Shown here in pieces: positions 2 to 19,167 of a DNA stretch of 64,000 nt. Location of the stretch: assembly GCF_003149185.1 (NCBI RefSeq), contig NZ_QGDO01000005.1:186001-250000 (forward strand), in the 5' to 3' direction. Position numbers and translations under genes: made by a program. Source of the stretch: Sediminitomix flava. GTDB lineage: Bacteria > Bacteroidota > Bacteroidia > Cytophagales > Flammeovirgaceae. The notes below the pieces were generated by a model. That model saw only the letters and a list, made by a program, of their open reading frames with translations, did not search any database and was not told the DNA's origin. Every line of letters starts with the position of its first letter. Within the stretch, counting starts at the first letter, position 1.

Positions 2-3000
2 TTTGGAGATGGAAATACTTCTGTTGTAACCAATAGAAATCCATTCACACATCAATACACAGCAGCAGGTACTTATACGATATCTTTAACTGCCGTAACG
101 GAAAGAAATTGTGCGACTATTTTACAAAAAGATGTTGAAGTACATGAATTTCCAAACTTAGCTATCGAATCGAATTTTACTGAAGGAAGTGATTTTAGAA
201 AAATTATTTGTGAAGGGAGTGGGACAATCTCACCAAGAGCAGGAAGTGCTTTGAATGCAAATTTTGATTATTTGTGGACAATTCAACAAGTTAATGGAGG
301 AGCAGCAAATGTCAGTGTAGGAAATACTTTCAACACACACTCTTTTGATGTAAATGCGGTTAGCTACGATTCGGGTTCAAGATTTCTTGAAGTAGGTTTT
401 GATTTGGTGGTAATTGATACCTCTGAAAATTCTAATTGTACAATAACCTTAAGTGATTCAGTATATATTTATAGAGATCCAGATATTTTATTTGCGGACT
501 CAATTGGGGTTTCTGACTGTGATACATCTTATACCATCATGCCGCTTGGTACAGAAGTCGTTAATGGCTATACCTATCAATGGAGTAATGTACCTGGTAG
601 TATGTCAGGAGGAGTAGTTACATCTGGATCTTCCAATAATCAGGATTATTATACTGAGGTAACGAGTTTTGACCCAGATAGTGCACATGCTCAAATGCGA
701 TATGCTCTTAGGGTAAGAAATGATGGAAGTTTTAAAGGAATAAATACGGGTTGTGATGATAGAGATTCAGTAACAGTACACTTTTTCCGTACACCAGAAA
801 TTACAAATCAAGACTCATTGTTCTGTGCTCTTGTGAATGACACCTTACAGTTTACACCATTTGATACAGAAAATATTGTTGATTTCACAAATGTATGGTC
901 AGAAACAACTGCGCCAACTGGAGGTGCAGTGGATTATTTAGATTTGAATGTTCAGAACCTAGAGATTGAACCTACCGCATTTGATAACAGTAGTACAAAA
1001 ATTACAGGTAGCCTAACACTTCTTTCAACAAATAGTCTTTCTCCAACTTGTACTGATTCTGAAACTTATGATTATACAATTTACAGAAAACCAGATATCA
1101 ATCTCACCGAAATGAAAGCTGGTGGAAGTTGTAGTTTGGAAGCTGAATTAAAACCTTTTGGAAATGAAGCAATAGACTATGACTATACTTGGTCTTTGGT
1201 CTCAGCTGTAGGAGGTACGGTCAGTGTTCAGAATAATTTGACAGACCAAGACTTGACTATTCAAGTAGATAATTTTGATTCTTTATCTTCAATTGTTCAA
1301 GTAAGATGCAAGCTAGTTGCAGTACACAAAGAAAGTATGACTTGTGCAGACTCTTCTGAAATAACAGTAGAGTTTTATAGAACACCTATTACAGATCTTA
1401 ATCATATCAGTAGATCACCACTTTGCGAAGATGGTTCGATAGATGTTTCACCAAGTGAAGCTACAGTAAATGGGTTTGTGTATGAATGGACAGTTACTGA
1501 CATTTTTTCTTCCCCAACTGATGGGGCAGGAGAGACAATAAGTATCAGTGATACTTCTATCTATGAACCAACAATTAGTAATCCTACATTTTTAGCAAAT
1601 AGCTCACTTACAACAGTACAGCTTAATTTGAAGGTCAGCAATCTTGCAAACCCAACTTGTTTTACTCAAGATACACTTTCACTCACATTCTATGTCAATC
1701 CAGACCCTGCATTAAATGTAGTAACAACCGAAGATACATTAAGAGTAGGTACAGGGCAGAAAGTGTATAGGTTGGTTAATGATCAAGCGACTGTTCAGTT
1801 TGAAGATCAATCTACTCATCAGGCTCCAGGAATAAATATTAATGCAATTAATTGGGACTTTGGTGATGGGAATAATCTGTTTGCTCAAACGCCATTAGCT
1901 ACAGTCACTAGTAATTACATAAATCAATACGGAGAGACTGTAATTTCGCTTACTGCAATTGACGATAGAGCTTGTCAAGATTCTGTACAAACAAGAATTT
2001 ATCTTGCTCCTGAGCCAATTATTGACCCTGTTCAAATTACAAATGTTTGTATCGGAGATTCTACTCAGTTTAGTGTATTGGTTGATTATGCGATTGATTC
2101 ATTAGAAAATAGAACAGATAACCAATTTGATTGGGATTTTGGTGACGGTACTGGCTGGCAAATGAATTTAGGAGAAAGTCCAACTCATTATTATGCAACA
2201 CCTGATAATTTAAACGATACAACTTTTACGGCAACTCTTAGAGTAACAAGTAGATATGGTACAACATCTACCAGAACCTTTGATGTTGATCTTTTGAGAA
2301 CGCCTTATTTTGATGATTATGAAATAGTCTACAATGGAGATTCGTGTTCCAATGATTTTACTGCTTTCCCATTGGGACAGTCGGATATAAATACTGGAGT
2401 TTTTAACTATTCTTGGGTTGCAACAAATGTGACCGGAACAGATGGAAATACTCCTTTAGATGCTTTAGTAGCAGACCCTACAAATGAAGATCAGAATGCC
2501 AACGTAGGTTTTGCTCTCCCTAGCAACATTTTCGGGCAAAATGAAACTAGGGTGGTTTTGACTTATGAGTTGACGATGGCCAATGTTCAAGACTCGTTGA
2601 ATTGTATAGCAGTTCTAGATACCTCTATGACTTTTTATAGAACTCCAGTATACCTAAATGATTCAATTACTAGAGCTAACTTCTGTGATCTTGAAGTAGA
2701 TATTAAACCTTTAGGAGATTCCATCACAATTGCTCATGGAGCAGGGTTTAATTACCAATGGTCTATTGTTGATGGAAGTTTAACTGGAGCGAGTATTTCT
2801 GAAGCAGACTTTTTAATTCAATCTGGTTTAGCGACTCAGCTAAATAATCAAAATGTCAATTTATCAATCAGTAATACCATTTTTGCGAATGGAGAATCTG
2901 AGATATTCCTTCAAGTTCGTTCTGAGATAGAAAATACATTTAGGACTTCTTGTCAAGATTCAAAAATCTATGATGTGTATTTCTATCGTACGCCTGAGAT

Positions 3001-6000
3001 TGATTTTACAGATGATCTAACAGCTTGTGGTGATGAAATAAATATTGCACCACTTGGAGCTGAACTTGTAAATGGCTTTAGTTATTTATGGCAAATTACA
3101 AGTTTCGATGGTTTTGATGGTACGCCATCTATCACGGCAGGGAATGATACACTTCAAAATCTGAACTTTAGTATTTCGAATTCAGATTTCATTTCTGATA
3201 CTTCAGTCATTGATTTAGATTTTAGATTAAGTGTTGCTCATCCTGTAGATGTAAGTGATTCAAGTTGTTTGGTTACCAAAGATACCTTAGTAAAGTTTTA
3301 TCGTACACCAATTGTTGACCTTACTTATCAGAAAGTAGCCAACGATACCTGTGCTCAGATAGCAACCCTTTTCCCTTTGGAAGACACAGTAAAAGGCTTT
3401 ATTTATGAATGGTCATTAGTATCAGAAAATAGAGGTCATATCACGCTTCCTTCAGACTTGAGTGCTAGAGAACTATTGATTGAAGTAGATTCTTTTGCAA
3501 TGGGAGAAGTAGATATTGAAGCAACCTTCAAATTAAAAGTTTGGAATTCGGAGTCTGTAAGCTGTGTAGATAGTTCGACTGTAGATATTCGTTTTTATAG
3601 AACACCAGAGACTATGGTGATGACCACAGGTAGTACTTGTGATCAAGATGTGATGTTTACATCTGCGAATGAAACTTTAATGAATGCTGATTATGTATGG
3701 AATCAGTTAGCTTTATCGGGTGGTACGGTTAATATCATGGGAGATTCTACTAGGGAGCTTCAAGTAATGGTAGATGATTATTCTGATGGAAGTACACAGA
3801 TTGATGTTACATATGAAGTTGCAATTATCAATACGCTAGTAGCCAATGATTGTGATGACTATGATACATTAAGCTATACTTTTTACCGACCGCCTTTAAT
3901 TGACCTAACTATTGAAAGAGATTCTTGTGATGGGCAGATAGTTTTTAAATCATTTGGTGACGAAACGATTGCAGGTTTTGATTATCAGTGGAGTATTGAC
4001 AGTTTGAGAGGCGGTAGTGTTCAGAATTCAGATTTGTCTCTTCAAAATTTAAGTGTTTCGCCAAATTTATATGATAGTCTTTCGCATTCAATAGAAGTTT
4101 TCTTAAGTCTTGAAGTTGAAAATATAGCATCTGGTTGTACAAATATTCAAGATACATCTGTCGTGCTAAAACGAATCCCGAATGCTTTTACTAGCGCTGA
4201 TAATCAGAATACTTGTGCTAGTGATACACTTTCATTCTCTGCTGATGAAAGTGATAATAGTGGATTTGTGTATGATTGGTCAAGAATCCAATTGGAAGAC
4301 AATCTTAATCAACCTAAAACGACTATTTACGAGAGTAATCGGAATTCATATGAGTTGGATTTATCTTATGACAATAATCTTTTTAGTGGAGAAGAATTAT
4401 TCGTTGAAGGACTTTATGAGATTAACATTCAAAATAGCTTATCAGATAGTTGTGTATCTGTCGATACTGTAAATGCTAGATTTTATAGAATACCAGAAAC
4501 AGGTTTGTCATTTGCATGGGATAATTCAGATTCATGTGCACAGGAGTTGACGATTACTCCGATGGAAAATAAGGTTAGTGGATTTATTTACTCATGGAGT
4601 ATTGTAGAAGTAGATAGTGGAAGTGTAGATACACTTTGGATAAATGATGATTATGAATTAGAAGTCTCTGTAGACTCTTACAATACTGGAGAATCTATTA
4701 TAGAAGCTTCAATAGAGGTTGAAATCACCAATAGCCTGAGTGGGAGTTGTACTGTAAAAGATACGATTGATATTGTATTCTATAGACCTCCTTTTATAGT
4801 TGCAACAGTAGATTCTCTTGCCTGTACATCTGAGTTTACTTTACATTCAACACCTGAAGAAGTTTCAGGTTTTAATTATACTTGGTCTCAAACATCTGTC
4901 AATGGTGGTTCTGTTTCGATGGGAGTAACCGACAAAGATAGTCTAGTTGTGAATGTGACTTCTTTTGATTCAGCGAGTACATTTGTAGATGTAGTTTATC
5001 AATTGGATGTGATGCATGATTCTGTAAATGCATGTCCAATTACAGAGAATTATGCCGTTAGATTTTATAGAACACCTCAACTTTTCTACAACATTGCTCA
5101 AGACAGTTGTTCAGATACAGCAGCTTTAAATCCAATATCCAATGAAGTTATTTCGGGTTATAATTTTACTTGGTCAAAAACAAATACTATTGGAGGACAA
5201 GTTTCAACTGCTGATTCAACAAGTCAAATTTTGAATCTCAATCTCTCTAATTTTGATTCACTTTCGCATAAAGTAACTGTAGACTATCATTTAGATATAG
5301 AAAATCCTGATCAAAATAGTTGTTCAATTGCTCATGATACTACAGTTGTATTCTATAGAACACCAAGTGTAGTTTTTGCTACAGATAGTTTATTTAGTTG
5401 TGCAGATAGTTCGTTAGTAGCGAGTGTTCAAGAAGACTCAATAGGAGGATTTGATTACACTTGGAGGCAAATATCAATTCAATCGGATCAGTCTGTTGTT
5501 TCTCAGCAAATCAATCAGAATTCATTATCTGATTATGAGCTTCAAACTACTTTTGCAAATGTAGATTTCCCTTCTGACGCGGCTCGTATGATTTTCGGTT
5601 ATGAGTTGAGTGTAGAAAACGCTGAATCTACTAGTTGTGCAAACTTAGATACTATCAATTTTGTTTATTACCGAATCCCAGACTTTGATCTTACGGTAAC
5701 AAGAGCAGGAAATGATAGCTGTGCGTCTATGGCGACATTCCAAGCCGATGAAGCTCAAGTAAACGGTTTCAATTATCAGTGGACAGTACTAGATACCACA
5801 GGTGGAGCTGTAAGCGTGGTCAATAACCTTACAGATTATAATCTAGATGTTGCTTTGGATTCATTTGCTATAGGTAGTTCTGAGGTGGAAGTAGAAGTAG
5901 AACTAATAGTGGGTAATTCATTTACCACAAATTGTACTCAAAGAGATACCCTATCGGTTATTTTCTATCGAACACCTGATTTGGTTTTAAATTTAGATCA

Positions 6001-9000
6001 GTCAGCTTGTTCTGAACACTTTGTATTGAATATCACTGAAGAGTCAGTTGGTGGATTTAATTATGAGTGGGATGTGATAAATGTCTTAGGTGGAAGTGTA
6101 AGTTATACTAACTATCTTGATGATAGTTTAGCTGTTTCAGTGGATTCATTTGCAAATGGTAGCTCGTTTATCGACGTGTCAGTTGAATTGGATGTAGAAA
6201 ATGCGAACTCAACGTCATGTCAAGATACCACATCAACGATGGTGAGAATTCACCGTACACCAGTTGCAAATATTCAATTAGATTTATTGGATTGTGCCCA
6301 ATCATCTCAAGTAGATGCGATAGGCGGAGAAACAGTTAGTGGATATACTTATTTATGGACGTTAATTGATGATGAAGGAGGTAGTGTTCAAATCACAAAT
6401 CCAACAGGTGAAGTAACTGATATTAGGGTGCAATCCTTTGATTCATTGTCCTTTGATATTGATGTTTCTGTAGCCTTATCAATTACCAATACAGATAATC
6501 CAAGTTGTATCGATCTTGATACATTGACTTTCAAATTCTATAGAACACCAGATGCTTCTATCAGTGCAGATAGTTTGTTTGCTTGTTCAGATGGACAAAT
6601 TCAAGTTTCGCCAACAGAACTAGCAAATGATAGTCTGATTTATATTTGGTCAGTAGGCACAGTAGTAAGTGATCAAGGAGATAATTTGGCTATTCAACAT
6701 AATGGATTGAACAGCTATCAATTCTCATCAAGTTTTGTAAATGCGACATTCTCTGGTCAAGCAACCGTAGCATATGCAAAAGTTGGATTAGATGTTCAGA
6801 ATACCTCTTTAACAAGCTGTTTGGATACAGATTCTGCAGTCTTGACTTACTACAGAATCCCAAAAGTTGAAGCCAAAGCAACACCAATGGTCTCTTGTAC
6901 TGAAGGCGTTGAATTTACTTTGGATGAGGATTCAATAGGTAACTTTAATTACTATTGGAAACAAGAAAGTGTAACAGGTGGTACAGTGACCGCATTAGGC
7001 GATAGTTCTGATTGGAATTTTGAAGTATTAGCTTCAAGCTTTGATAGCGGAAGTCATCAGATAGAGCTTACTTACAGTGTCTTAGTTGTAAATAATAATT
7101 CAACCACATGCTCAGAAACAGATACAATCACCTATATCATAGAACGAGCTCCGCACATAGATTTATTTGTGTCAGCACATAACTGTGAGGATGATATATC
7201 CTTAAATGCAATCAACGCTGAAGGAATTACTGGCTTTGAATATACTTGGACAAAACTGACAGAAACAGGAGGAGCGGTAACTAATACAGATACAACTTCA
7301 GCAAACCTCAATGTGATGCTAGATCGTTTTGATAATACAGCTCATAAGCTAGAGGCAGATTATGAAGTAAGGGTGTCAAATCCAGATTTAGCACTTTGTG
7401 ATGAGGTATCGGATACTACAGTTGTATTCTATAGAATCCCAGAAGCTGAGATAGCTAATTCTACTTATTCGAATTGTGCAGATAACGTAATTAGTTTAAG
7501 TGCCGTAGAAGATTCTGTAGGTGGATTTAATTATCGTTGGGAGGAAATCGCAATGAACACAGATGCAGGTAGTTTGACTGCTTTAAGTTCAGTAAGTGAT
7601 ACCTCTAACTACGAGCTTTCTTTAAATATGACTAATGTAGATTTTCCAGTTACGACTTCTACAGTGAGTGTGACTTATGTACTTCATATTGAAAATTCTG
7701 AGTCAGGAAGTTGCACTGATTCAGATACTGTCTCAGTGAACTTTTACCGTACCCCTAATGCCGATTTAGCATTTACAAGAACTGCAAATGATAGTTGTAG
7801 TAATAGTTTATTACTAGCTCCAACTGAAGCACAGGTGACAGGTTTCAACTATAAATGGAGAACCCTTTCAGTAAATGGTGGTACAATTAGTTTAGATACT
7901 CTTTTGAGTGGTTACGAATTAGAAGTTACGTCTTCGTCTTTTGATAATGGAAGTGCTCAAATCACTGCACAATTTGAAATATTAGTTCAAAATAGTGCTG
8001 ATACTTTATGTGCTGATCGTGATACGATTTCTGTGAATTTATATAGAACTCCAGAGGTAGTTTATTCTAAAATTGGAGATGATTGTGATGATGAAATAGA
8101 CCTATTTGCTAACTCTGAAAGCATATCCGATTTCAATTATACTTGGACATTGCAAACGTCTACAGGAGGAACATATCAAACCTCTGCTTTGACGAGCGAT
8201 AGTTTGAATATTGAAACGCTCACATTTGATAATGGTAGTTCGCAAATCGATTTGACATATAATTTAAGAGTAGAAAATGCGCTATCTACCAATTGTTGGG
8301 TAGATACCTTGGTTAGCGAGTCGATTTTTAGAATCCCAGAAATTGATTTTGCTTTGAATCTAGATTCTTGTGATCTGTTAGCAGAAATTGATGCAATTCA
8401 ATCTGAAAATATTTCGGGATATACTTATCAGTGGAGAGTCTTGAATAGCGTAGGTGGTTCTGTAGCTATAAATGATAGTACTTTAGAAGATATTGATCTA
8501 AGTGTTACAAATTTTGATTCTCTTTCTCATAAAATCATTACAAACCTAGAAGTACAGGTTCGTAATGCTAATCAAATGACCTGTGCTGATTTGGATACGA
8601 TTGAGGTTATATTCCATCGTTCACCTTCGGCTCAGATTCTTGCTGTACAAAGAGATACTTGTGCAGGTAATGAATTAGCGTTAAGACCTATCGAAAGTGA
8701 AAATTCAGGATTTATTTATCAATGGTCAAGATCGGATGTTAGGGTTGATACAGGGACAGCTCCGGCAGTATCAATGCAAGCTGCCACAAATGCATATAAC
8801 CAGAGTTTTATTATTCAGAATAGTGACTTTACAGGGCAAACGACAACAGCTGCCTTTGCTGCATTCCTAAATGTGGAAAACACAGAAAGTAGTAATTGTA
8901 GTAGTACTGATTCTGTAATCCTAACTTTCTATAGAATTCCTGAAGTTGATTTGGTCTCAAGTTATGTAGGTAATGATAGCTGTTCCGATCAGATTAATAT

Positions 9001-12000
9001 TCGTCCACAAGAAATTGAGATTTCTAATTTTGAATATTCATGGAGTAAAATAGAAGAAGAAGGTGGAAGTGTAAGTGAGTTTACTAATCTTGATGTATAT
9101 CAATTAGGTGTAGATGTAAATACGTTCAATGTAGGGAGTTCTGTAGTGCGTGCCAGATATGAATTAATGGTGCGAAATGAATCAGATTTGACCTGTAGTG
9201 CTAGAGATACGATAGATGTTTTCTTCTACAGAACACCAGATATTTTAGCGCAATCTGATCTTCAAACCTGTGAACAAGCTGTTGTTCTAACCTCAAATAC
9301 TGAAAACGTAGTTGGTTTTGAATACCAGTGGAACTTGGAAAGTATAAGTGGTGGTAGTCTACAATTAGGGAATACAAGCTATGATAGTTTGGAAGTAAGC
9401 AGTCCATCATTTGATAATGGTAACCACTTTATAGATGCTCGTTTTAAAGTGGTATCTGAAAATGAAGTAACAGCATGTCAAGATAGTAGTGAAGTTGATA
9501 TTAGAATTCATAGAGTCCCTTCTATCAATTTCGATATCACAAAAGCCGATTGTGATGAAAATGCTGTAATCACATCGTTCGGATCGGAATTGATTGCTGG
9601 ATTCGATTACGAATGGGATATTTTAGATGATGATGGTGGACAAGTTTCAATCGATAATTCGGCAGCTCAAGATGTTAGATTTATAGTAAACTACTATGAT
9701 TCATTGAATGCTAAAATTGACCTAGATTTTAGGTTGACAGTAGAAAATAATGATTCTCCAGATTGTGAAGATATTCAAGATTCAACGCTTACATTCTATC
9801 GTACACCGAAGGCAACATTGGCTTTTGATAGTTTGACCAGTTGTATGAATATGCTTTCAATCAGTGCTGTGGAGGATTCTATTCCTGATTTCAACTACGC
9901 TTGGTCTATTCAGTCTCTTAATTCGGATGGAGAGAATTCAAGTATTTCTATTGAAAATTCAGACTTGAATCAGTATAACTTAGATATTCTAGTGGATAGT
10001 GCTGGTTTCCCTGCGAGTGCCTCTTGGGTTTCAATGGATGTGATGTTGAATGTTGAGAATAGTTTTAGTTCAACTTGTAGTGATTTGGACTCTGCTCAAT
10101 TGATTTTCTACAGACAACCAAAAGTTGAGTTAGCATCAGCATATATTGGAGGGGATTCATGTTCTTCACATATTTCAATTTTCCCTCAAGAAGACAGTGT
10201 TGGAGGGTTTACTTACACTTGGAGGAATATTTCTACTACTGGAGGAAATATCGTGACGGATCATTTAAATACAGCACATACACTCGAAGTTGAAGCGATA
10301 TCGTTCAATGGTAATGAAACTGAAATTCATGCACAGTTTGAGTTAGTTGTACAGAATAGTTCTTCAACTACTTGTAGTGCTTCAGATGTGATCGATATTT
10401 ATTTCTACAAAACACCGACCTTATCTTTTAGCCAAAACAATCAGTATTGTTCCTCTGATAACATTTTGGTGTCGCCAGTAGAAGATGAAAACGAAAACTA
10501 TAATTACACTTGGGACGTTGTGAGTCTTACCGATCAAAATGGAAATACATATAGCTTTGACCAAGTTTCTGACCTCAATGATTATCAACTTGGCTTGGTC
10601 TTCAATAGCTTCCCTCAAGAAGTAAGTGAACTAGATGCTGTTTTAGTTCTAAGTGTTGAAAATAGTTTGAATACTCAGTGTCAAGTTTTTGATACGCTTC
10701 AATTCTCAATTTTAAGATCTCCAGAAGTGAACTTGATGGTAGAATACACGCCTTCATGTTTGGATGAAACAATGAGAATTACTCCTGATATCGACTTTGT
10801 AGAGGATTATAATTATACGTGGGAGTTAGATACAGCTTATGATGATCTAGGTAATAGTATTATTCCTGTTACATCCGATTTACAAGGAAAGTATTTAGAA
10901 GTATCAAGACCTTCTACAATTGATATGTCAGCTGTAAGTTTTACAGCAGTGTATAGAGTCTCAATCGAGAATACATCTACAAATACGTGTATAAGCTCAG
11001 ATACAATCAGTTTGAGATTTGATAGGGCTGCCGATATAAGTTTAGCAGTAGCTGATACTTTATCATGTTCTGATGAAGTTTTAAGCCTTAGAGTAAATGA
11101 AAGTAGAGTAGATCGCTATAGTTTTGACTGGTATGTAGAACAGGTTTTATCAAATACTTCAGAGGTAGGAACAGTTGATCACACTTTAGATTCTCAAGAT
11201 AGAACGATTCAGTTAGATAAGCCTAGTTTCCCATACGGTTCAAGTTATTTGAACATCGATTTGAGAGCCGAATCACATAACCTCGAAAATGACAGTTGTT
11301 CAATAGGGGCTTATTATTCAGCGATCATGATCAGAAAACCAAGCTTTGAAAACTTGAGTGAGACAATTGCTGATTGTGGACTTCAAACATTGATCAAACC
11401 ATTTGGAGATGAAAGCATTGCGGGGTATGAGAATTCATGGTCAATTCAAAGTAGTTCTGGCTTAAGTATTAATCCTACATTGGATTCTACTCAAGTAAAT
11501 ATGATGGATCTTAGCTTTGGCATTACAGAAGCTGATTTTTCTACGGGAAGTCACAAAGCTGAAATTACATTTGCGCTGACTACAGCAAACAATAGTATTG
11601 ATAGTCTTTCATGTGTTGATTCAGTACAATATACTTCCGTATTTTATAGAACACCATCAATTGCTTTTGAACCTGAATATCTGAGTAGCGATAGTTGTTC
11701 GAATCAAATCAGTATTAATTCTAGCTCAGAAGATATTTCAGGTTTTAATTATACTTGGGTGAAAGTGGAGGAAGAAGGTGGAAGTGTAAGTGTCTCAAAT
11801 GATATGACTAAAGAAGTAGAGATTACTGTTGATAATTTTGAGGCAAGCTCTTCAGTGATAGAAGTACTTATGAGGTTGGATGTTGAAAACTCAGAATCGA
11901 CATCGTGTACTACTTCAGATACAATTAGAGTTCGATTGTTCAGAGACCCAAGCGCTCAAATTGTGATTGCAAGTGCAGCTGATTGTAATGATCAAATTAC

Positions 12001-15000
12001 TTTTACTCCACAAAGTGATATGATTGAAGGAATTGCGTATAACTGGACTGAAAATGAAATAGTAGGAGGACAAATTAATACGACAGGGCAAGGAACGTCA
12101 TTTGAAGCAGATATAATTTCATTTGATAGTGCTTCTCATAAAATAGATTTTGAGGTGACACTCACAACTCAAAATACGAACTCCAATTCATGTAGTAATA
12201 CTGAGACAGTATCCTATACATTCTACAGAACTCCAGAGATTAATTTTGCTGTAGTAGAAGGAGATTGTGAGGAAACAAAAATCATTAATCCTTTTGGTTC
12301 AGAAGTAATGATGGGTTACGATTACTCTTGGAGTATTAGCTCGCAAAGTGGAGGTACAATTCAGTTATCTAGTACAAGTTCAGAAAGTATCTCGGTGAAT
12401 GTTAATCAGTTCAATTCGAATAGTCATGTAATTGATGCGATCATCAGACTTGAAGTTCAGAACAGTGAATCAACTACATGTTCTGACATAGAAGAGATTT
12501 CTATCCAATTTAACAGAACACCTTCTGTTACCTTAAATTCTGATGAGAGAATTGTTTGTGAGGATGATCAAATAACTCTCGGTCTTGATGAAGATGTATT
12601 AAATGGTTTCGATTATCAATGGGTACAAGTCAACTTGAGTACAGACACAGCAGGTGTAACTAGCTTAAATAATACGGATTTGAGTTTACCTAGTATTGAC
12701 CTATCTAATCCGGTTTTCCCGATGGGAGCAGCCATTGTAACAAGTACTTATGAATTACAGGTATTGAATGAAAATTCTACTTCTTGTTTGGCATCTGATA
12801 CAATCACAGTTTCTTTCGCAAGGACTCCAACAGTGGAATTGATAGAAGTTGAAAATAACTTCTGCTCGGTAGCAGCAGTACCAATTTTCCCAATAGAGGA
12901 CGAAGATGTACGAGGCTACACTTATCAATGGCGTAAAGTTGTTGCTAGAACTGATCAAGGAGATGATGTAACTCTTCTTGAAGAAGGCCTAAATGAGAAA
13001 CAATTATTCGTAAGCTTTGATGATGAACTTTCTAGTAATATTAGTGAGATTACTGCTACTTATGAATTATTAGTTTTCAATTCATATTTACCTTCTTGTC
13101 AAGCATCAGAGCAAATTACCTTCACCATTCAAAGAGCAGGAGCTGTATCGATTATTGAAGATGAAGATTCAATTTGTGGGCAAACAAGTTACTCATTTAC
13201 ACCTGGTGAAAACATGCCAGAAAACTATAGTTTTGAGTGGACTAAAGTTGAAGAATCGACAGATTTGAATACTGAAACAAATTGGGTTTCTAAAACTAGT
13301 TTAGCAAATAATGCAATCCAAATAGATATCGATAGTTTCCCAACAGGAACAGCGCAAATTACAGCATCTTATAGCTTAATGGTATCTAGAAATGGAAATG
13401 CGATGTGTGTAACTGATTCAGTATATACACGAACGTTCATCAGAGAGCCTAATGCCTTCATAAATAATGAATATCAAATATGTTATAGTGATTCAATAAC
13501 CTTGGTTCCTTTAGGAATGGAGGAGGTTTCTAATTTCTCTTATCGTTGGACGCAAATACAAGGATTTGAAGATAATGATGGTTTAGAGCATATCATTTCA
13601 TATTCAGACACGCTATCTGAAACTTCAAATATTTTACTGACCAGTCCTGAGTTTCCAGATAATGTATATACGCTAACCACAAGGTATCAACTTGAGATAT
13701 GGAATAACTTTAGTCCTAACTGTAAGCAAACATTAGAAACTGATGTAGTCTTCTATAGACTTCCTGAATTTGTAGTGGCTGATACAACTTCTATCTGTGA
13801 AGGCGAAGGAATCACCCTTTCGATGATTGACAATACGCTTTCGGGCTTTATTGCTAATTGGGATATTGTAGATGTGAAAGGTGGAAGTATAAATTCTATA
13901 TCTAATCTTTCTCGTAACCAAATTTCAGTATCTGAAAATGCATTTAGTTCAGAAAGTGATAGTATTAAAATCTCATTAATAGCGAGTATTTCCCACCAAG
14001 AAAATACTAGTTGTATTGAACAAAAAGAGGTGGAAGTCTATATCATAAAAACTCCAGAAGTAGTCCTAAGTATAACAGACAACTGTGAAGATACAGCAGT
14101 TTTATTTGATGCAAGTGAAAGTCTGCTTTATGATAAACCACATCGTTTCTATTGGAGTATTGATCTAGGTAATGTATGGAATGAAACAACTGAACCATAT
14201 TTTGAATCAACATTCAATCAAGCAGGAGATCAAGAAGTGTGGTTAAGAATAGAAAATGAGACAGGTTGTAGTTCTGATATTTTCAAACAGCAATTCTATG
14301 TTAATCCAACGCCAGAACCTTTATTTAGTATCGAGAACACTTGTTTAGGAGTTGAAAGCAGATTAGTTAATTCTTCTACAATAAGTAATAATACACCATT
14401 GACCTATTCTTGGGAAGTCAGAAAAGATAGTATGTTGGTTTACACAACTGATGAATCTGAACCAGTTTTAAATCTAGAAGAGGCAGGGAATTATGAAGTA
14501 GTTCTTTATGCCATTTCCGAATTAGGATGTCGAGATTCATTAACTAAGAATTATGAAGTATATCCACTTCCAGTAGTTCAAATTTCCGAAGACAAGTATA
14601 TCTGTGAAGGCGATGCAATCAATCTAAATGTGAGTGGAGGGGAGGTATATCATTGGAGTACTGAAGAAGAAGGAGAGGAGATCGTAGTTTCACCAACAGA
14701 AGATACCTATTACTATGTTGAGGTAACGGATGAAAATGGCTGTATTTCTACTGACTCTGTCAAAGTTTCAGTAATTCCTAGAGTACCATTAGAATCAAAA
14801 ATCAGGTCATGTGTGGGTGAGGTTGTCACCTTAGATGCTCGAATTATGAACTATGATGGATTAGTTCAAACCTATGAATGGTCTACAGGAGCAACTACAC
14901 CATATATAGATGTTACAGAGTCAGGAATCTACACGGTACAAAGTATGGTAGAACATGCTAGTGGAGTATCTTGTATGAATACTTTAGATATCAATGTGAA

Positions 15001-15547
15001 GTTTAATCAAGCTCCACCAAAAACACTTGAGGCAGATACAGTCTACTGTTTTGAATTTGGAGATGTCATGACTTTATCTGCAGCCGAGGGCGATGACTTT
15101 ACATACTATTGGCATGATACAGGCGAAACAACACGAACTGTTGAGAGAAGAGGTTCGGGTACGTATTCGGTGACGGTTGTAGACGAATCAGATACGACTT
15201 TCTGTACGATGACCGATACGATTTCTGTTCAAGAGATTTGTCCACCAAGGGTTTACTTACCAAATGCCTTCACTCCAAATAATGATGGGCTAAATGATGT
15301 ATTTATTTTAAAGACAGCATACGCATTAAATATCACCTTAAAAATATTTAATAGATGGGGTGAAGAAATCTTCTTTATGAATTATGAAAACTCAGAAGAA
15401 GCCAATGAAGAAGGCAATGCTTGGGATGGAAAAAATGGAAGTAAAGAAATGCCAGCAGGTACTTACAATTACATCATAATGTATGAAAGTGAACTTGAAC
15501 GGGGTAAAATGTTGACGGAATATGGTCAGATAACTTTAATACGTTAA
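2..15547 (+). CDS. Giant multi-module secreted protein with T9SS type B C-terminal sorting domain (5' end outside window)
   Basis: The frame is open from base 2 to the stop at 15547, giving 5181 visible residues; the true start lies upstream. The first residues form a PKD-type FGDG motif, and two more PKD-like segments with FGDG lie near nt 1855-2300. The rest is a string of more than 40 modules of about 95-105 residues. Each has an early Cys (often DSC), a G-F-x-Y-x-W motif, often GG(S/T/A)V, a late Cys (commonly after NS-x-S) and a closing strand like FYRTP. The last 100 residues (nt about 15240-15544) contain LPNAFTPNNDGLNDVF and an NRWGE...WDGK core. This matches the gliding-motility-associated C-terminal domain (CHU_C family), the T9SS type B signal. 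Known for the family: export through the outer membrane and surface attachment or release. Inferred: a surface adhesin or matrix fibre. No enzymatic domain is visible. Confidence 0.9.
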   Translation, partial: FGDGNTSVVTNRNPFTHQYTAAGTYTISLTAVTERNCATILQKDVEVHEFPNLAIESNFTEGSDFRKIICEGSGTISPRAGSALNANFDYLWTIQQVNGGAANVSVGNTFNTHSFDVNAVSYDSGSRFLEVGFDLVVIDTSENSNCTITLSDSVYIYRDPDILFADSIGVSDCDTSYTIMPLGTEVVNGYTYQWSNVPGSMSGGVVTSGSSNNQDYYTEVTSFDPDSAHAQMRYALRVRNDGSFKGINTGCDDRDSVTVHFFRTPEITNQDSLFCALVNDTLQFTPFDTENIVDFTNVWSETTAPTGGAVDYLDLNVQNLEIEPTAFDNSSTKITGSLTLLSTNSLSPTCTDSETYDYTIYRKPDINLTEMKAGGSCSLEAELKPFGNEAIDYDYTWSLVSAVGGTVSVQNNLTDQDLTIQVDNFDSLSSIVQVRCKLVAVHKESMTCADSSEITVEFYRTPITDLNHISRSPLCEDGSIDVSPSEATVNGFVYEWTVTDIFSSPTDGAGETISISDTSIYEPTISNPTFLANSSLTTVQLNLKVSNLANPTCFTQDTLSLTFYVNPDPALNVVTTEDTLRVGTGQKVYRLVNDQATVQFEDQSTHQAPGININAINWDFGDGNNLFAQTPLATVTSNYINQYGETVISLTAIDDRACQDSVQTRIYLAPEPIIDPVQITNVCIGDSTQFSVLVDYAIDSLENRTDNQFDWDFGDGTGWQMNLGESPTHYYATPDNLNDTTFTATLRVTSRYGTTSTRTFDVDLLRTPYFDDYEIVYNGDSCSNDFTAFPLGQSDINTGVFNYSWVATNVTGTDGNTPLDALVADPTNEDQNANVGFALPSNIFGQNETRVVLTYELTMANVQDSLNCIAVLDTSMTFYRTPVYLNDSITRANFCDLEVDIKPLGDSITIAHGAGFNYQWSIVDGSLTGASISEADFLIQSGLATQLNNQNVNLSISNTIFANGESEIFLQVRSEIENTFRTSCQDSKIYDVYFYRTPEIDFTDDLTACGDEINIAPLGAELVNGFSYLWQITSFDGFDGTPSITAGNDTLQNLNFSISNSDFISDTSVIDLDFRLSVAHPVDVSDSSCLVTKDTLVKFYRTPIVDLTYQKVANDTCAQIATLFPLEDTVKGFIYEWSLVSENRGHITLPSDLSARELLIEVDSFAMGEVDIEATFKLKVWNSESVSCVDSSTVDIRFYRTPETMVMTTGSTCDQDVMFTSANETLMNADYVWNQLALSGGTVNIMGDSTRELQVMVDDYSDGSTQIDVTYEVAIINTLVANDCDDYDTLSYTFYRPPLIDLTIERDSCDGQIVFKSFGDETIAGFDYQWSIDSLRGGSVQNSDLSLQNLSVSPNLYDSLSHSIEVFLSLEVENIASGCTNIQDTSVVLKRIPNAFTSADNQNTCASDTLSFSADESDNSGFVYDWSRIQLEDNLNQPKTTIYESNRNSYELDLSYDNNLFSGEELFVEGLYEINIQNSLSDSCVSVDTVNARFYRIPETGLSFAWDNSDSCAQELTITPMENKVSGFIYSWSIVEVDSGSVDTLWINDDYELEVSVDSYNTGESIIEASIEVEITNSLSGSCTVKDTIDIVFYRPPFIVATVDSLACTSEFTLHSTPEEVSGFNYTWSQTSVNGGSVSMGVTDKDSLVVNVTSFDSASTFVDVVYQLDVMHDSVNACPITENYAVRFYRTPQLFYNIAQDSCSDTAALNPISNEVISGYNFTWSKTNTIGGQVSTADSTSQILNLNLSNFDSLSHKVTVDYHLDIENPDQNSCSIAHDTTVVFYRTPSVVFATDSLFSCADSSLVASVQEDSIGGFDYTWRQISIQSDQSVVSQQINQNSLSDYELQTTFANVDFPSDAARMIFGYELSVENAESTSCANLDTINFVYYRIPDFDLTVTRAGNDSCASMATFQADEAQVNGFNYQWTVLDTTGGAVSVVNNLTDYNLDVALDSFAIGSSEVEVEVELIVGNSFTTNCTQRDTLSVIFYRTPDLVLNLDQSACSEHFVLNITEESVGGFNYEWDVINVLGGSVSYTNYLDDSLAVSVDSFANGSSFIDVSVELDVENANSTSCQDTTSTMVRIHRTPVANIQLDLLDCAQSSQVDAIGGETVSGYTYLWTLIDDEGGSVQITNPTGEVTDIRVQSFDSLSFDIDVSVALSITNTDNPSCIDLDTLTFKFYRTPDASISADSLFACSDGQIQVSPTELANDSLIYIWSVGTVVSDQGDNLAIQHNGLNSYQFSSSFVNATFSGQATVAYAKVGLDVQNTSLTSCLDTDSAVLTYYRIPKVEAKATPMVSCTEGVEFTLDEDSIGNFNYYWKQESVTGGTVTALGDSSDWNFEVLASSFDSGSHQIELTYSVLVVNNNSTTCSETDTITYIIERAPHIDLFVSAHNCEDDISLNAINAEGITGFEYTWTKLTETGGAVTNTDTTSANLNVMLDRFDNTAHKLEADYEVRVSNPDLALCDEVSDTTVVFYRIPEAEIANSTYSNCADNVISLSAVEDSVGGFNYRWEEIAMNTDAGSLTALSSVSDTSNYELSLNMTNVDFPVTTSTVSVTYVLHIENSESGSCTDSDTVSVNFYRTPNADLAFTRTANDSCSNSLLLAPTEAQVTGFNYKWRTLSVNGGTISLDTLLSGYELEVTSSSFDNGSAQITAQFEILVQNSADTLCADRDTISVNLYRTPEVVYSKIGDDCDDEIDLFANSESISDFNYTWTLQTSTGGTYQTSALTSDSLNIETLTFDNGSSQIDLTYNLRVENALSTNCWVDTLVSESIFRIPEIDFALNLDSCDLLAEIDAIQSENISGYTYQWRVLNSVGGSVAINDSTLEDIDLSVTNFDSLSHKIITNLEVQVRNANQMTCADLDTIEVIFHRSPSAQILAVQRDTCAGNELALRPIESENSGFIYQWSRSDVRVDTGTAPAVSMQAATNAYNQSFIIQNSDFTGQTTTAAFAAFLNVENTESSNCSSTDSVILTFYRIPEVDLVSSYVGNDSCSDQINIRPQEIEISNFEYSWSKIEEEGGSVSEFTNLDVYQLGVDVNTFNVGSSVVRARYELMVRNESDLTCSARDTIDVFFYRTPDILAQSDLQTCEQAVVLTSNTENVVGFEYQWNLESISGGSLQLGNTSYDSLEVSSPSFDNGNHFIDARFKVVSENEVTACQDSSEVDIRIHRVPSINFDITKADCDENAVITSFGSELIAGFDYEWDILDDDGGQVSIDNSAAQDVRFIVNYYDSLNAKIDLDFRLTVENNDSPDCEDIQDSTLTFYRTPKATLAFDSLTSCMNMLSISAVEDSIPDFNYAWSIQSLNSDGENSSISIENSDLNQYNLDILVDSAGFPASASWVSMDVMLNVENSFSSTCSDLDSAQLIFYRQPKVELASAYIGGDSCSSHISIFPQEDSVGGFTYTWRNISTTGGNIVTDHLNTAHTLEVEAISFNGNETEIHAQFELVVQNSSSTTCSASDVIDIYFYKTPTLSFSQNNQYCSSDNILVSPVEDENENYNYTWDVVSLTDQNGNTYSFDQVSDLNDYQLGLVFNSFPQEVSELDAVLVLSVENSLNTQCQVFDTLQFSILRSPEVNLMVEYTPSCLDETMRITPDIDFVEDYNYTWELDTAYDDLGNSIIPVTSDLQGKYLEVSRPSTIDMSAVSFTAVYRVSIENTSTNTCISSDTISLRFDRAADISLAVADTLSCSDEVLSLRVNESRVDRYSFDWYVEQVLSNTSEVGTVDHTLDSQDRTIQLDKPSFPYGSSYLNIDLRAESHNLENDSCSIGAYYSAIMIRKPSFENLSETIADCGLQTLIKPFGDESIAGYENSWSIQSSSGLSINPTLDSTQVNMMDLSFGITEADFSTGSHKAEITFALTTANNSIDSLSCVDSVQYTSVFYRTPSIAFEPEYLSSDSCSNQISINSSSEDISGFNYTWVKVEEEGGSVSVSNDMTKEVEITVDNFEASSSVIEVLMRLDVENSESTSCTTSDTIRVRLFRDPSAQIVIASAADCNDQITFTPQSDMIEGIAYNWTENEIVGGQINTTGQGTSFEADIISFDSASHKIDFEVTLTTQNTNSNSCSNTETVSYTFYRTPEINFAVVEGDCEETKIINPFGSEVMMGYDYSWSISSQSGGTIQLSSTSSESISVNVNQFNSNSHVIDAIIRLEVQNSESTTCSDIEEISIQFNRTPSVTLNSDERIVCEDDQITLGLDEDVLNGFDYQWVQVNLSTDTAGVTSLNNTDLSLPSIDLSNPVFPMGAAIVTSTYELQVLNENSTSCLASDTITVSFARTPTVELIEVENNFCSVAAVPIFPIEDEDVRGYTYQWRKVVARTDQGDDVTLLEEGLNEKQLFVSFDDELSSNISEITATYELLVFNSYLPSCQASEQITFTIQRAGAVSIIEDEDSICGQTSYSFTPGENMPENYSFEWTKVEESTDLNTETNWVSKTSLANNAIQIDIDSFPTGTAQITASYSLMVSRNGNAMCVTDSVYTRTFIREPNAFINNEYQICYSDSITLVPLGMEEVSNFSYRWTQIQGFEDNDGLEHIISYSDTLSETSNILLTSPEFPDNVYTLTTRYQLEIWNNFSPNCKQTLETDVVFYRLPEFVVADTTSICEGEGITLSMIDNTLSGFIANWDIVDVKGGSINSISNLSRNQISVSENAFSSESDSIKISLIASISHQENTSCIEQKEVEVYIIKTPEVVLSITDNCEDTAVLFDASESLLYDKPHRFYWSIDLGNVWNETTEPYFESTFNQAGDQEVWLRIENETGCSSDIFKQQFYVNPTPEPLFSIENTCLGVESRLVNSSTISNNTPLTYSWEVRKDSMLVYTTDESEPVLNLEEAGNYEVVLYAISELGCRDSLTKNYEVYPLPVVQISEDKYICEGDAINLNVSGGEVYHWSTEEEGEEIVVSPTEDTYYYVEVTDENGCISTDSVKVSVIPRVPLESKIRSCVGEVVTLDARIMNYDGLVQTYEWSTGATTPYIDVTESGIYTVQSMVEHASGVSCMNTLDINVKFNQAPPKTLEADTVYCFEFGDVMTLSAAEGDDFTYYWHDTGETTRTVERRGSGTYSVTVVDESDTTFCTMTDTISVQEICPPRVYLPNAFTPNNDGLNDVFILKTAYALNITLKIFNRWGEEIFFMNYENSEEANEEGNAWDGKNGSKEMPAGTYNYIIMYESELERGKMLTEYGQITLIR
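3296..10105 (+). repeat. Higher-order tandem repeat: four-module blocks of about 1185 nt inside the giant gene
   Basis: I used the first codon of the FYRTP-like boundary as a phase marker. Equivalent modules start at 3296, 4481, 5666, 6848, 7742, 8927 and 10106. The intervals are 1185, 1185, 1182, 894, 1185 and 1179 nt, all multiples of three. Each full block has four successive module types. The first carries a lengthened NDSC or NDTC start, the second is short, and the third contains FDSLSHK-like sequence. The fourth is a longer module whose GGxV motif is replaced by an insertion. The 894-nt block lacks one of the first two types. Beyond 10106 the order becomes irregular. The copies are diverged at the DNA level, so this is an old amplification rather than a recent exact one. 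Confidence 0.8.
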
Positions 15548-15712: not shown

Positions 15713-17083
15713 ATGACCCAGAAACTAATACTTTCCTTTTTACTTAGTTTTTCTGTGCACAGTCTATTTGCACAGCATTTACAAGTATTTACTGAAGACT
15801 ACAAAAAGTTTGGATACCTACATCGACAAACTGAAGAAATTGTCAAAAAGGCAAAATATGATATTGCTTTAGAATTTGAAGGAAGAGTAGCGAGAGTCGT
15901 AAAAAATGGGAAATGGGGTTTAGTAGATGAAAAAGGTAAAACGATAGTAAAACCTAAGTATGATTATATCAGTAAGTTTAATGAATTTGATGTAGCTAAA
16001 GTCTGTAAAGGCTGTGATGAATATGGATTGGGTGGACTTTGGGGACTCTTAGATAAAGAAGGAATTCTGATCACACCACCATTTTTTGAATACATTTCTG
16101 AGTATAATAACGATGGGATTGCAATTGTTTGCAAAGGAGGATTCTTAAAAGAAGAACAAAAACTAGATTACGCTCCTTTAATATCTTTTGAGGAACCTGT
16201 ATTGATTTTAGCTAGAAAAGATGGGAAAGTTTTTGAAGAAGAACCTTGGAGTTGGGCTACTTCAACCAATGCAAATGAAAGTATTGAGCTTTTTAATCTT
16301 TATCCTTATGCATATCGGAAAGAGGGGCATTGGGGATTAATTGATCGTGATGGTCATTATGTGACAGGTCTTATTTATGATATGATAGGACATTTACCTT
16401 CGGCTGAATATATTTCTCCAGAAAAATCAATCATTAAAGTTTGTACAGCATGTGAAGTTCTAGTGAGAGAATCTTATGGTAAAGTGCATGATTATTTTGA
16501 AGATAGTTGGATTGGAGGGAAACAAGGGTATATAGATTTTGAAGGTAAGGAAGTTATCCCATTGGAATATGGTTATATAAAAGAAGTCGTAGCAGATAAA
16601 AAATACTTGTTGGTCTCAGATGAGAACCGAAGACATATTATAGACGAACAAAGGCATTTAAATTATTGGACAGGTAAAGGAAAGGTAGCCTTAATTGAGA
16701 AAAATACAGGCAAAAAAATCATTCCTTTTAAGTATAACATGATTGAGGTATTTATCTATAATGAATCGATGCAGTATATAGTGGGGTACGTAGATAGAGA
16801 AAAGGAAATAGAGTTTTATGGAGTACTAGATAAGTCAGGTAAAGAGATTATTCCACCTAGTGAAGAATATCAAGAAATCATTCCTGTGACAAATGATATT
16901 TTTATCACTGTAAAAAAAGATAACCTATCTGAAAAGTATGGTCTAATTAATCTTAATATAAGCGAAACACTTACGCCTCAATTTATGGATTATGAATTAG
17001 CCTTTGATGGAGAGACAATTAAAGGCATAGAATTCTATGATCGGAACAAGCAGAAGAAAGTATATAAAATTCATTCCCTTTAG
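15713..17083 (+). CDS. Secreted WG-repeat (KWG beta-propeller-like) protein
   Basis: The product has 456 residues and starts with a signal peptide ending near FAQH (about residue 21). Several repeats of the WG type are visible, with cores such as KWGLVDEKGK, LWGLLDKEG, HWGLIDRDG and YGVLDKSGKEIIPP, each followed by an xYDxI-like segment. These are the hallmarks of the WG_beta_rep family, thought to form propeller-like folds. The molecular function of this family is unknown. The protein should act in the periplasm or outside the cell. The gene follows the giant gene in the same direction after 165 nt containing a long hairpin, so co-transcription is possible but unproven. No catalytic motif is seen. 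Confidence 0.85.
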   Translation: MTQKLILSFLLSFSVHSLFAQHLQVFTEDYKKFGYLHRQTEEIVKKAKYDIALEFEGRVARVVKNGKWGLVDEKGKTIVKPKYDYISKFNEFDVAKVCKGCDEYGLGGLWGLLDKEGILITPPFFEYISEYNNDGIAIVCKGGFLKEEQKLDYAPLISFEEPVLILARKDGKVFEEEPWSWATSTNANESIELFNLYPYAYRKEGHWGLIDRDGHYVTGLIYDMIGHLPSAEYISPEKSIIKVCTACEVLVRESYGKVHDYFEDSWIGGKQGYIDFEGKEVIPLEYGYIKEVVADKKYLLVSDENRRHIIDEQRHLNYWTGKGKVALIEKNTGKKIIPFKYNMIEVFIYNESMQYIVGYVDREKEIEFYGVLDKSGKEIIPPSEEYQEIIPVTNDIFITVKKDNLSEKYGLINLNISETLTPQFMDYELAFDGETIKGIEFYDRNKQKKVYKIHSL

Positions 17084-18399: not shown

Positions 18400-19044
18400 T
18401 TAAGATTGAATTAATGAATTAACCAATTGCTTGTATTTAGGGAATTTATTGAGGTCATTCTCATTGTCTAGATCAGATAGGGGAGGTAGGGTTGAAAATG
18501 TTAGGTTTAGTTCTTTAAAATCATTTAATGTGTCTTTAAACACACTAGATGTACTCCATTTTTTTCCTTCAAAAATTTGAGGATGTATTTCTTTTAATGC
18601 CAATAGGTAGTAACCACCATCTTCAGCAGGACCAATAGTTACATCAGATTTTTCTAAAAAATTATAAGAATTAATTAAGATTTCACCTGTAATATCAGGA
18701 CAGTCACTACCAATGATTCCTACTTTTTTATATCCGAGATTTAAACATTCTTGAAAGGCAGTCATCATTTTTACACCTAGGTCTCCAGTCTGCTGAAGTT
18801 GCTTTTTTACATTAATTTGATCCCATAAATCGTTAGAAACAATCTGGTCTTGATAGTAAATGAAAATATCTGCTTCCAAGTTTCTTACAGCTTCTAGTGT
18901 ATCTTTGAGAAGTTCTTTATATACCTCAACAGCTAAGTCATAACCTATAGTTTTACCTAACCTTGTCTTGACTTTTCTTTCGATTGGTTCTTTTACGAAA
19001 ATGATTAAAGCATTCTCAGATTGTTTTTTTTCGTTAGTGATCAT
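18400..19044 (-). CDS. TIGR04282-family glycosyltransferase (DUF2064, CofC/GT-A like)
   Basis: I place the start at the ATG at 19044; a TTG 21 nt further upstream is possible but less likely. The product has 214 residues. It has the FVKEP...K-x-R-L-G nucleotide-binding start, the GSDCPDI segment typical of the family, and PAEDGGYYLLAL. These match the family annotated as arsenosugar-biosynthesis-type glycosyltransferase or DUF2064, which has a GT-A nucleotidyltransferase-like fold. The real sugar donor and acceptor here are unknown. No radical SAM or arsenic genes are adjacent, so an arsenosugar role is not supported by context. It is probably cytoplasmic. Confidence 0.85.
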   Translation of the reverse strand: MITNEKKQSENALIIFVKEPIERKVKTRLGKTIGYDLAVEVYKELLKDTLEAVRNLEADIFIYYQDQIVSNDLWDQINVKKQLQQTGDLGVKMMTAFQECLNLGYKKVGIIGSDCPDITGEILINSYNFLEKSDVTIGPAEDGGYYLLALKEIHPQIFEGKKWSTSSVFKDTLNDFKELNLTFSTLPPLSDLDNENDLNKFPKYKQLVNSLIQS

Positions 19045-19167
19045 AAAATAAAAACAAGTACTCAAAATTAATGTTGTATTATTCTACAGCTATCTCTGGA
19101 ATAGGTCTGAATTTTTATATAATTTAACACAGTAGCTAAATTTTTAGAAATCAAACTAACATTGCTC

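What the first reader, a model, noticed from the sequence alone, without database searches (positions are those of the whole stretch)
3296..10106. Giant gene grew by duplication of a four-module block of 395 residues
Boundaries of equivalent modules recur at 1185, 1185, 1182, 894, 1185 and 1179 nt. Module types follow a fixed order (NDSC-start, short, FDSLSHK-type, long GG-less) through six blocks, one of which lacks a module. The unit of amplification is therefore a four-domain block, not a single domain. This may reflect a physical repeat of the fibre. Such super-periodicity is not obvious from single-domain annotation.
Basis: seen in the sequence. Interest (0 to 1): 0.75.

Follow-up and report, generated by a model that had tools for sequence, protein, structure and literature searches.

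The report
Surface fibre grown by block duplication
A giant bacterial surface protein of 6,844 amino acids lengthened by copying blocks of four immunoglobulin-like modules at a time, while its relatives in a sister genus copy blocks of five, so the block size is a trace of how the gene recombined and not a fixed building unit of the fibre.

Summary
The modules are 94-105 residues each. Identity is 32-34% at lags of 4, 8, 12, 16 and 20 modules and about 25% at all others (0 of 20,000 label permutations reach this). An ungapped offset of 395 residues gives 20.3% identity, 12 SD above the mean. The nearest relative sits at the same block position for 21-22 of 23 modules.

The gene encodes a 6,844-residue type B T9SS cargo (PKD-rich start, 43 Ig-like modules in no Pfam family, CHU_C end). 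A PorP/SprF gene lies 33 nt upstream. Best reading: a SprB-like surface adhesin or stalk.

The 'physical fibre repeat' idea is not supported. Flammeovirga orthologues have a five-module period. One carries a 1,512-bp, 98.4%-identical five-module duplication broken at module linkers. Paralogues in the same genome use units of two (600 bp) and three (918 bp). Block size is lineage-specific, probably inherited through unequal recombination at linkers. The process is known (titin, nebulin); the family and the 5-to-4 change are new.

The parts
2..15547 (+). Giant gene, 3' three quarters. The whole ORF is 6,844 aa; its ATG lies 4,987 nt before the window (contig C5:181013)
   Evidence: one open frame with signal-peptide-like start MKKNFLYIFFILLLFANHNESFAQ. 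C-terminal TIGR04131 / CHU_C
482..1702 (+). Modules M01-M04, N-terminal modules outside the block array
   Evidence: cluster with modules of Flammeovirga and of genome G003
1703..2305 (+). Two PKD domains inserted in the module array
   Evidence: PF18911 matches in this stretch
2648..4180 (+). Modules M07-M11: one copy of the Flammeovirga-type five-module block (T1-T2-T3-T4-T5 in order)
   Evidence: HMM assignments with margins 17, 43, 11, 12, 6 bits; 0 of 5,000 order shuffles
3311..4495 (+). Block 1, modules M09 A (3311-3607), M10 B-position (3608-3895), M11 C (3896-4180), M12 D (4181-4495)
4496..5680 (+). Block 2, modules M13-M16 (A 4496-4792, B 4793-5077, C 5078-5365, D 5366-5680)
5681..6862 (+). 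Block 3, modules M17-M20
   Evidence: closest to block 5
6863..7756 (+). Block 4, three modules: M21 (A/B intermediate, 6863-7153), M22 C, M23 D
7757..8941 (+). Block 5, modules M24-M27
8942..10120 (+). Block 6, modules M28-M31
10121..10417 (+). Module M32, type A, start of an incomplete block, followed by non-block modules M33-M36 (10418-11656)
   Evidence: 107.8 bits to A, 62.5 to the next class
11657..12829 (+).
   Evidence: best profile A, B, C, D in order (92.0, 69.5, 95.0, 65.2 bits)
12830..14056 (+). Modules M41-M44, C-terminal non-block modules
15257..15544 (+). T9SS type B C-terminal sorting domain (CHU_C / TIGR04131)
   Evidence: C5:201257-201544

Best explanation
The gene encodes a giant type B T9SS cargo, held at the cell surface by its own PorP/SprF-type outer-membrane partner, and most likely works as a SprB-like adhesin or long stalk. 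Its shaft is a string of about 43 Ig-like modules, each with one conserved cysteine pair. The shaft grew by in-frame tandem duplication of several whole modules at once, with crossovers in the DNA that encodes the conserved F-Y-R-x-P linker between modules. An ancestral five-module block is kept and still being copied in Flammeovirga. In the lineage of this genome one copy of it remains (M07-M11), and a four-module block that overlaps it (A-B-C-D) was copied instead. Seven complete or near-complete copies survive, one of which has lost a module. Later events reuse the existing period because unequal recombination pairs modules at the same block position, which are the most alike. Shown: period 4, the extra block, period 5 in Flammeovirga, a recent five-module duplication with both breakpoints in the linker, units of 2 and 3 in paralogues, the PorP/SprF neighbour. 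Inferred: unequal homologous recombination as the agent, the pairing bias, the direction 5 to 4, surface location, adhesive function.
For: Period 4. Block histories partly agree across the four module classes (mean matrix correlation 0.30, 35 of 5,000 permutations), and blocks 3 and 5 are sisters in concatenated trees (91/96 and 94/98), as expected if whole blocks were copied. Flammeovirga period 5: lag-5 pairwise score 179-191 against 60-82 at other lags up to 9. Recent events: G002 carries 1,512 bp, five modules, at 98.4% nt identity, single in its relative G012 (86% nt identity across the gene); both breakpoints fall at the F-[YF]-R-x-[PA] motif. G010 has three and G017 two copies of a different five-module unit (1,539 bp, 75-82%), again bounded at the motif. 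Paralogues in the same genome: two-module unit of 600 bp, about 88% nt; three-module unit of 918 bp, 94-96%. One five-module block in this gene; 0 of 5,000 shuffles. Type B CTD. PorP/SprF gene 33 nt upstream (E = 2.7e-53), also next to the orthologues in G002 and G003 and to one paralogue. SprF binds SprB in F. johnsoniae (PMC9143113). Fold: models of one block (pLDDT 85) and one module (pLDDT 87) are all-beta; block matches are cadherin-like tandems.
Against: The old four-module duplications have almost no DNA-level trace, so their breakpoints cannot be seen and the mechanism is read across from younger events in relatives. The B module of block 1 does not group with other B modules. No adhesive domain was identified, and no T9SS dependence, localisation or adhesion was tested. 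The direction 5 to 4 rests on shared module types in three lineages; the support in G003 is weaker (24 of 5,000).
Confidence: 0.8

Rival explanations
1. The four-module period is a structural unit of the fibre (one turn, or one binding repeat) and selection keeps the block size at four, as titin super-repeats match the thick filament.
For: The four classes are distinct and keep their order in seven blocks. Titin gives a precedent (PMC10665226).
Against: Orthologues have a period of five and paralogues two and three. One block of this gene lacks a module, and stretches M01-M08, M33-M36 and M41-M44 do not follow the period.
Confidence: 0.12
2. Modules multiplied one at a time, and position-specific selection or gene conversion later made every fourth module alike.
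For: Some single-module changes exist (block 4 lacks one; M32 stands alone). Gene conversion among copies cannot be excluded for blocks 3 and 5.
Against: The four classes share class-specific lengths (D 104-105 residues, A 99, B and C 94-96), block histories partly agree across classes (35 of 5,000), and whole duplications of several modules are directly seen in relatives.
Confidence: 0.06
3. A refinement of the best explanation: a higher-order doubling, in which blocks 2-3 were copied together as an eight-module unit to give blocks 4-5, after which block 4 lost a module.
For: Blocks 3 and 5 are close in all four classes (residuals +8.3, +5.4, +6.5, +6.3; 91/96). Blocks 2 and 4 pair in C and D (+8.6, +5.0). 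The two-block offset of 692 residues is almost as strong as 395.
Against: The 2-4 grouping is not resolved in trees.
Confidence: 0.35

Closest known systems
Titin / connectin A-band super-repeats (PMC10665226) and nebulin seven-domain units (PMC1553488)
   Same: Domains copied in blocks; domains at the same block position are the closest relatives; growth in the middle of the array.
   Different: Eukaryotic sarcomere proteins with no sequence relation shown. In titin the super-repeat is tied to thick-filament periodicity; here the block size differs between orthologues.
SprB of Flavobacterium johnsoniae with its PorP-like partner SprF (PMC9143113)
   Same: Giant type B T9SS cargo; PorP/SprF-family gene next to it.
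   Different: The repeat module here matches no Pfam family, SprB repeat included, and no role in gliding was tested.
Periscope proteins and fibrillar adhesins (PMC8201768, PMC8286594)
   Same: Surface stalks of tandem folded domains whose number varies between related strains.
   Different: In periscope proteins near-identical repeats vary in number; here neighbouring modules share only about 26% identity and multi-module blocks vary.
Orthologous giant proteins of Flammeovirga (sp. OC4, EKP202, SJP92, F. aprica, F. pacifica)
   Same: Same N-terminal region and module family; PorP/SprF neighbour in G002, the one genome of that genus checked.
   Different: Five-module instead of four-module period; 31-42 recognised modules instead of 43.

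Membership tests
Type B T9SS cargo (TIGR04131 / PF13585 CHU_C) | C-terminal type B sorting domain above curated cut-off | tested here: met
   TIGR04131 45.8 bits against cut-off 35; CHU_C 64 bits against 27
Type B T9SS cargo (TIGR04131 / PF13585 CHU_C) | N-terminal Sec signal peptide | tested here: inconclusive
   Read from sequence only: MKKNFLYIFFILLLFANHNESFAQ has the expected form; no predictor was run
SprB-type adhesin with PorP/SprF partner | Adjacent PorP/SprF-family gene | tested here: met
   358-aa protein 33 nt upstream, PF11751 E = 2.7e-53
SprB-type adhesin with PorP/SprF partner | SprB repeat (Pfam) in the shaft | tested here: not met
   No Pfam family with a credible match in the module array
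SprB-type adhesin with PorP/SprF partner | Surface display and role in gliding | not testable with these tools
   Needs mutants and microscopy
Known Ig-like / PKD stalk families in Pfam | Module matches a curated family above cut-off | tested here: not met
   21 modules scanned singly: best E 0.0026, unrelated families, none in more than 2 modules
Ig-like beta-sandwich fold | Seven-strand all-beta fold similar to solved Ig or cadherin domains | tested here: inconclusive
   Seven strands, pLDDT 87. Best single-module PDB hit E 6.4e-3 with TM about 0.43; cadherin hits up to TM 0.65; block hits to protocadherins E 7e-11 but TM about 0.29
Domain super-repeat (block-duplicated array) | Same-position modules are closest relatives | tested here: met
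[quoted passage not shown]
   32-34% identity between blocks in this gene. The paralogue on contig C3 (about 849-859 kb) does reach about 82% for its 200-residue unit

The most novel reading that the evidence does not exclude
Block size in these bacterial giant fibres is a heritable, self-templating trait: once a block of n modules exists, unequal recombination at the inter-module linker keeps copying n modules (5 in Flammeovirga at least twice, at different phases; 4 here; 3 and 2 in paralogues), and a lineage can switch n by starting from a different, overlapping frame of the same ancestral modules.
Probability: 0.5. Interest if true: 0.6.

Novelty: new variant of a known kind. Interest (0 to 1): 0.45.

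Why it matters
Growth of repeat proteins by blocks is known mainly from eukaryotes, where it is often read as matching a physical period. Here one bacterial gene family offers orthologues with different block sizes, paralogues with others, and duplications young enough (98% identity) to see their breakpoints. That makes the question 'does recombination or structure set the super-repeat length?' directly testable, and the present evidence favours recombination. It also defines an undescribed Ig-like module family which, in the genomes sampled, is strongly matched only in one bacterial family, that of Flammeovirga.

Tried and rejected
1) M21 as a clean A/B fusion left by a deletion: quarter-by-quarter scoring gave no A-to-B switch, only an intermediate; HMM and joint tree put it nearest B. 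Left open.
2) One-to-one matching of own and Flammeovirga modules by best reciprocal score: too noisy (21-43% identity everywhere), only fragments. Replaced by type profiles.
3) Self-comparison at DNA level: three short hits, no block-length match, so the block structure is visible only in protein.
4) Lag analysis of the whole own gene without placing the missing module: signal smeared to 28%. It must be indexed by block position.
5) Naming the organism by a genome-contig scan with the window's own protein: no relative found. A second scan with Flammeovirga N termini gave genus names for relatives. The window genome itself remains unnamed.
6) Repeating twist of a block: the tools give no coordinates, so it was not measured.
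7) PDB by sequence: no match.
Full report
WHAT IT IS. The finding lies inside one open reading frame that enters the window from the left. With 4,987 nt fetched from upstream on the same contig, the gene encodes 6,844 residues. It has a signal-peptide-like start, a PKD-rich N-terminal part, 43 modules of 94-116 residues interrupted by two PKD domains, a few further PKD/Ig-like domains and a type B T9SS C-terminal domain. In an alignment of 21 modules two cysteines, a Trp and the final Pro of the terminal F-Y-R-x-P motif are invariant. No Pfam family recognises the modules. No solved structure matches by sequence. Predicted models are all-beta, seven strands for a single module, pLDDT 87 alone and 85 as a block of four, with weak single-domain similarity to Ig and cadherin domains and tandem similarity to cadherins. 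I read them as an undescribed Ig-like stalk module; the exact fold family is inconclusive.

Modules 9-32, indexed by block position with the missing module of block 4 placed, show 32-34% identity at lags 4, 8, 12, 16 and 20 and 21.6-27.2% at all other lags. Shuffling class labels within blocks never reproduced the difference in 20,000 trials, and 21 of 23 modules have their nearest relative at the same block position. Pairwise alignments that do not depend on the multiple alignment give the same answer, 22 of 23. In the tree A, C and D are each one side of a branch among the classed modules; B is not, because M10 falls outside.

Leave-one-out profiles of the four classes extend the array: M32 is a clear A, and M37-M40 (11657-12829) read A, B, C, D in order. 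Between them and at both ends lie modules that do not follow the period. Block distances partly agree across the four classes (mean correlation 0.30, 35 of 5,000 permutations), as expected if blocks were copied whole. Blocks 3 and 5 are close in all four classes and sisters in concatenated trees, although block 4 lies between them. With the weaker 2-4 pairing this suggests an eight-module event, but 2-4 is not resolved. The module lost from block 4 is probably an A, because M21 scores best as B (79.5 against 70.6 bits), but M21 is intermediate.

RELATIVES SETTLE THE INTERPRETATION. The module profile finds strong relatives in 10 of the 17 other sampled genomes of the same family: nine of one genus and one of another. 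A named scan shows the genus to be Flammeovirga. Outside the family only weak matches appear, and none at E <= 1e-6 among 147 other genomes drawn from the phylum. The N-terminal 418 residues align at 36-38% identity to the window protein, and a PorP/SprF gene precedes the gene in the window genome, in G002 and in G003, so I treat them as orthologues. In Flammeovirga the period is five modules, not four, and the joint tree shows lag-5 groups there ({3,8,13,18}, {9,14}, {10,15}, {6,11,16}, {7,12}), while the window's A, C and D classes are nearly confined to the window gene. G002 carries a tandem copy of 1,512 bp, exactly five modules, at 98.4% nucleotide identity. Its relative G012, 86% identical across the gene, has one copy, and both junctions lie at the F-[YF]-R-x-[PA] codons. 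G010 and G017 carry three and two copies of another five-module unit of 1,539 bp, bounded at the same motif but out of phase with the unit in G002 (module lengths). In the window's own genome one paralogue is built of a 600-bp two-module unit (about 88% identity, about seven copies) and another of a 918-bp three-module unit (94-96%). Units of 2, 3, 4 and 5 modules thus occur in one domain family.

THE SWITCH FROM FIVE TO FOUR. Profiles of the five Flammeovirga positions (T1-T5) assign M07, M08, M09, M10 and M11 of the window gene to T1, T2, T3, T4 and T5 in order; no shuffle of module order in 5,000 does as well. G003 shows T2-T3-T4-T5 at its modules 4-7 and T1-T2-T3-T4 at 8-11 (24 of 5,000 shuffles for the T1-T5 run that starts at module 8). 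This also explains why M10 is an odd B: it is a T4 module. The direction is inferred.

HOW IT MOST LIKELY WORKS. Shown: a type B T9SS cargo next to a PorP/SprF-family gene. In Flavobacterium johnsoniae SprF binds SprB, and PorP-like proteins are proposed to anchor type B cargo (PMC9143113). Inferred: the protein is a surface-anchored adhesin or stalk, its length set by module number. Shown in relatives and inferred here: growth by tandem duplication with junctions in the linker codons. Inferred: the period perpetuates itself because same-position modules are most alike and pair preferentially.

COMPARISON. Duplication of several domains at a time is the common mode in domain-repeat proteins (PMC1553488), and titin's A-band is a detailed case of super-repeats with position-specific similarity (PMC10665226). 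In bacteria, periscope proteins vary by near-identical repeats (PMC8201768), and CHU_C-anchored fibrillar adhesins are recognised in Bacteroidetes (PMC8286594). The process here is of a known kind. The module family and the change of block size between orthologues are, as far as the searches of open-licence papers went, not described.

VERDICT. Observation confirmed; block-wise growth supported; fibre-geometry reading not supported. Interest 0.45.

Noticed in passing
L010:9903-10979 (contig C5:179903-180979), 33 nt upstream of the giant gene, outside the window: PorP/SprF-family outer-membrane protein gene in apparent operon with the giant gene; the same arrangement next to the orthologues in G002 and G003 and the C3 paralogue.
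   Followed up: yes
L063:2631-13076 (contig C3:848631-859076): Paralogous giant gene (3,481 aa) with about seven copies of a 600-bp two-module unit at about 88% nucleotide identity, preceded by its own PorP/SprF gene; a candidate variable-length protein.
   Followed up: partly
L064 (start of contig C2, minus strand) and L062 (start of contig C3, plus strand): Two open frames that run off contig ends inside a 918-bp three-module repeat (94-96% identity); probably one giant gene broken by the assembly at the repeat.
   Followed up: partly
1703-2305: Two PKD domains sit inside the module array between M04 and M06, so the shaft is not uniform.
   Followed up: no
15713-17083: Downstream gene encodes a 456-aa protein of WG repeats (PF14903).
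   Followed up: no
18400-19065 (minus strand): TIGR04282-family arsenosugar biosynthesis glycosyltransferase gene.
   Followed up: no
G000:C3:655103-657079 and C1:1787979-1790972: Further large ORFs (4,089 and 1,353 aa) with Big_9 repeats and type B CTDs; the genome has ten type B CTD matches over the curated cut-off.
   Followed up: no
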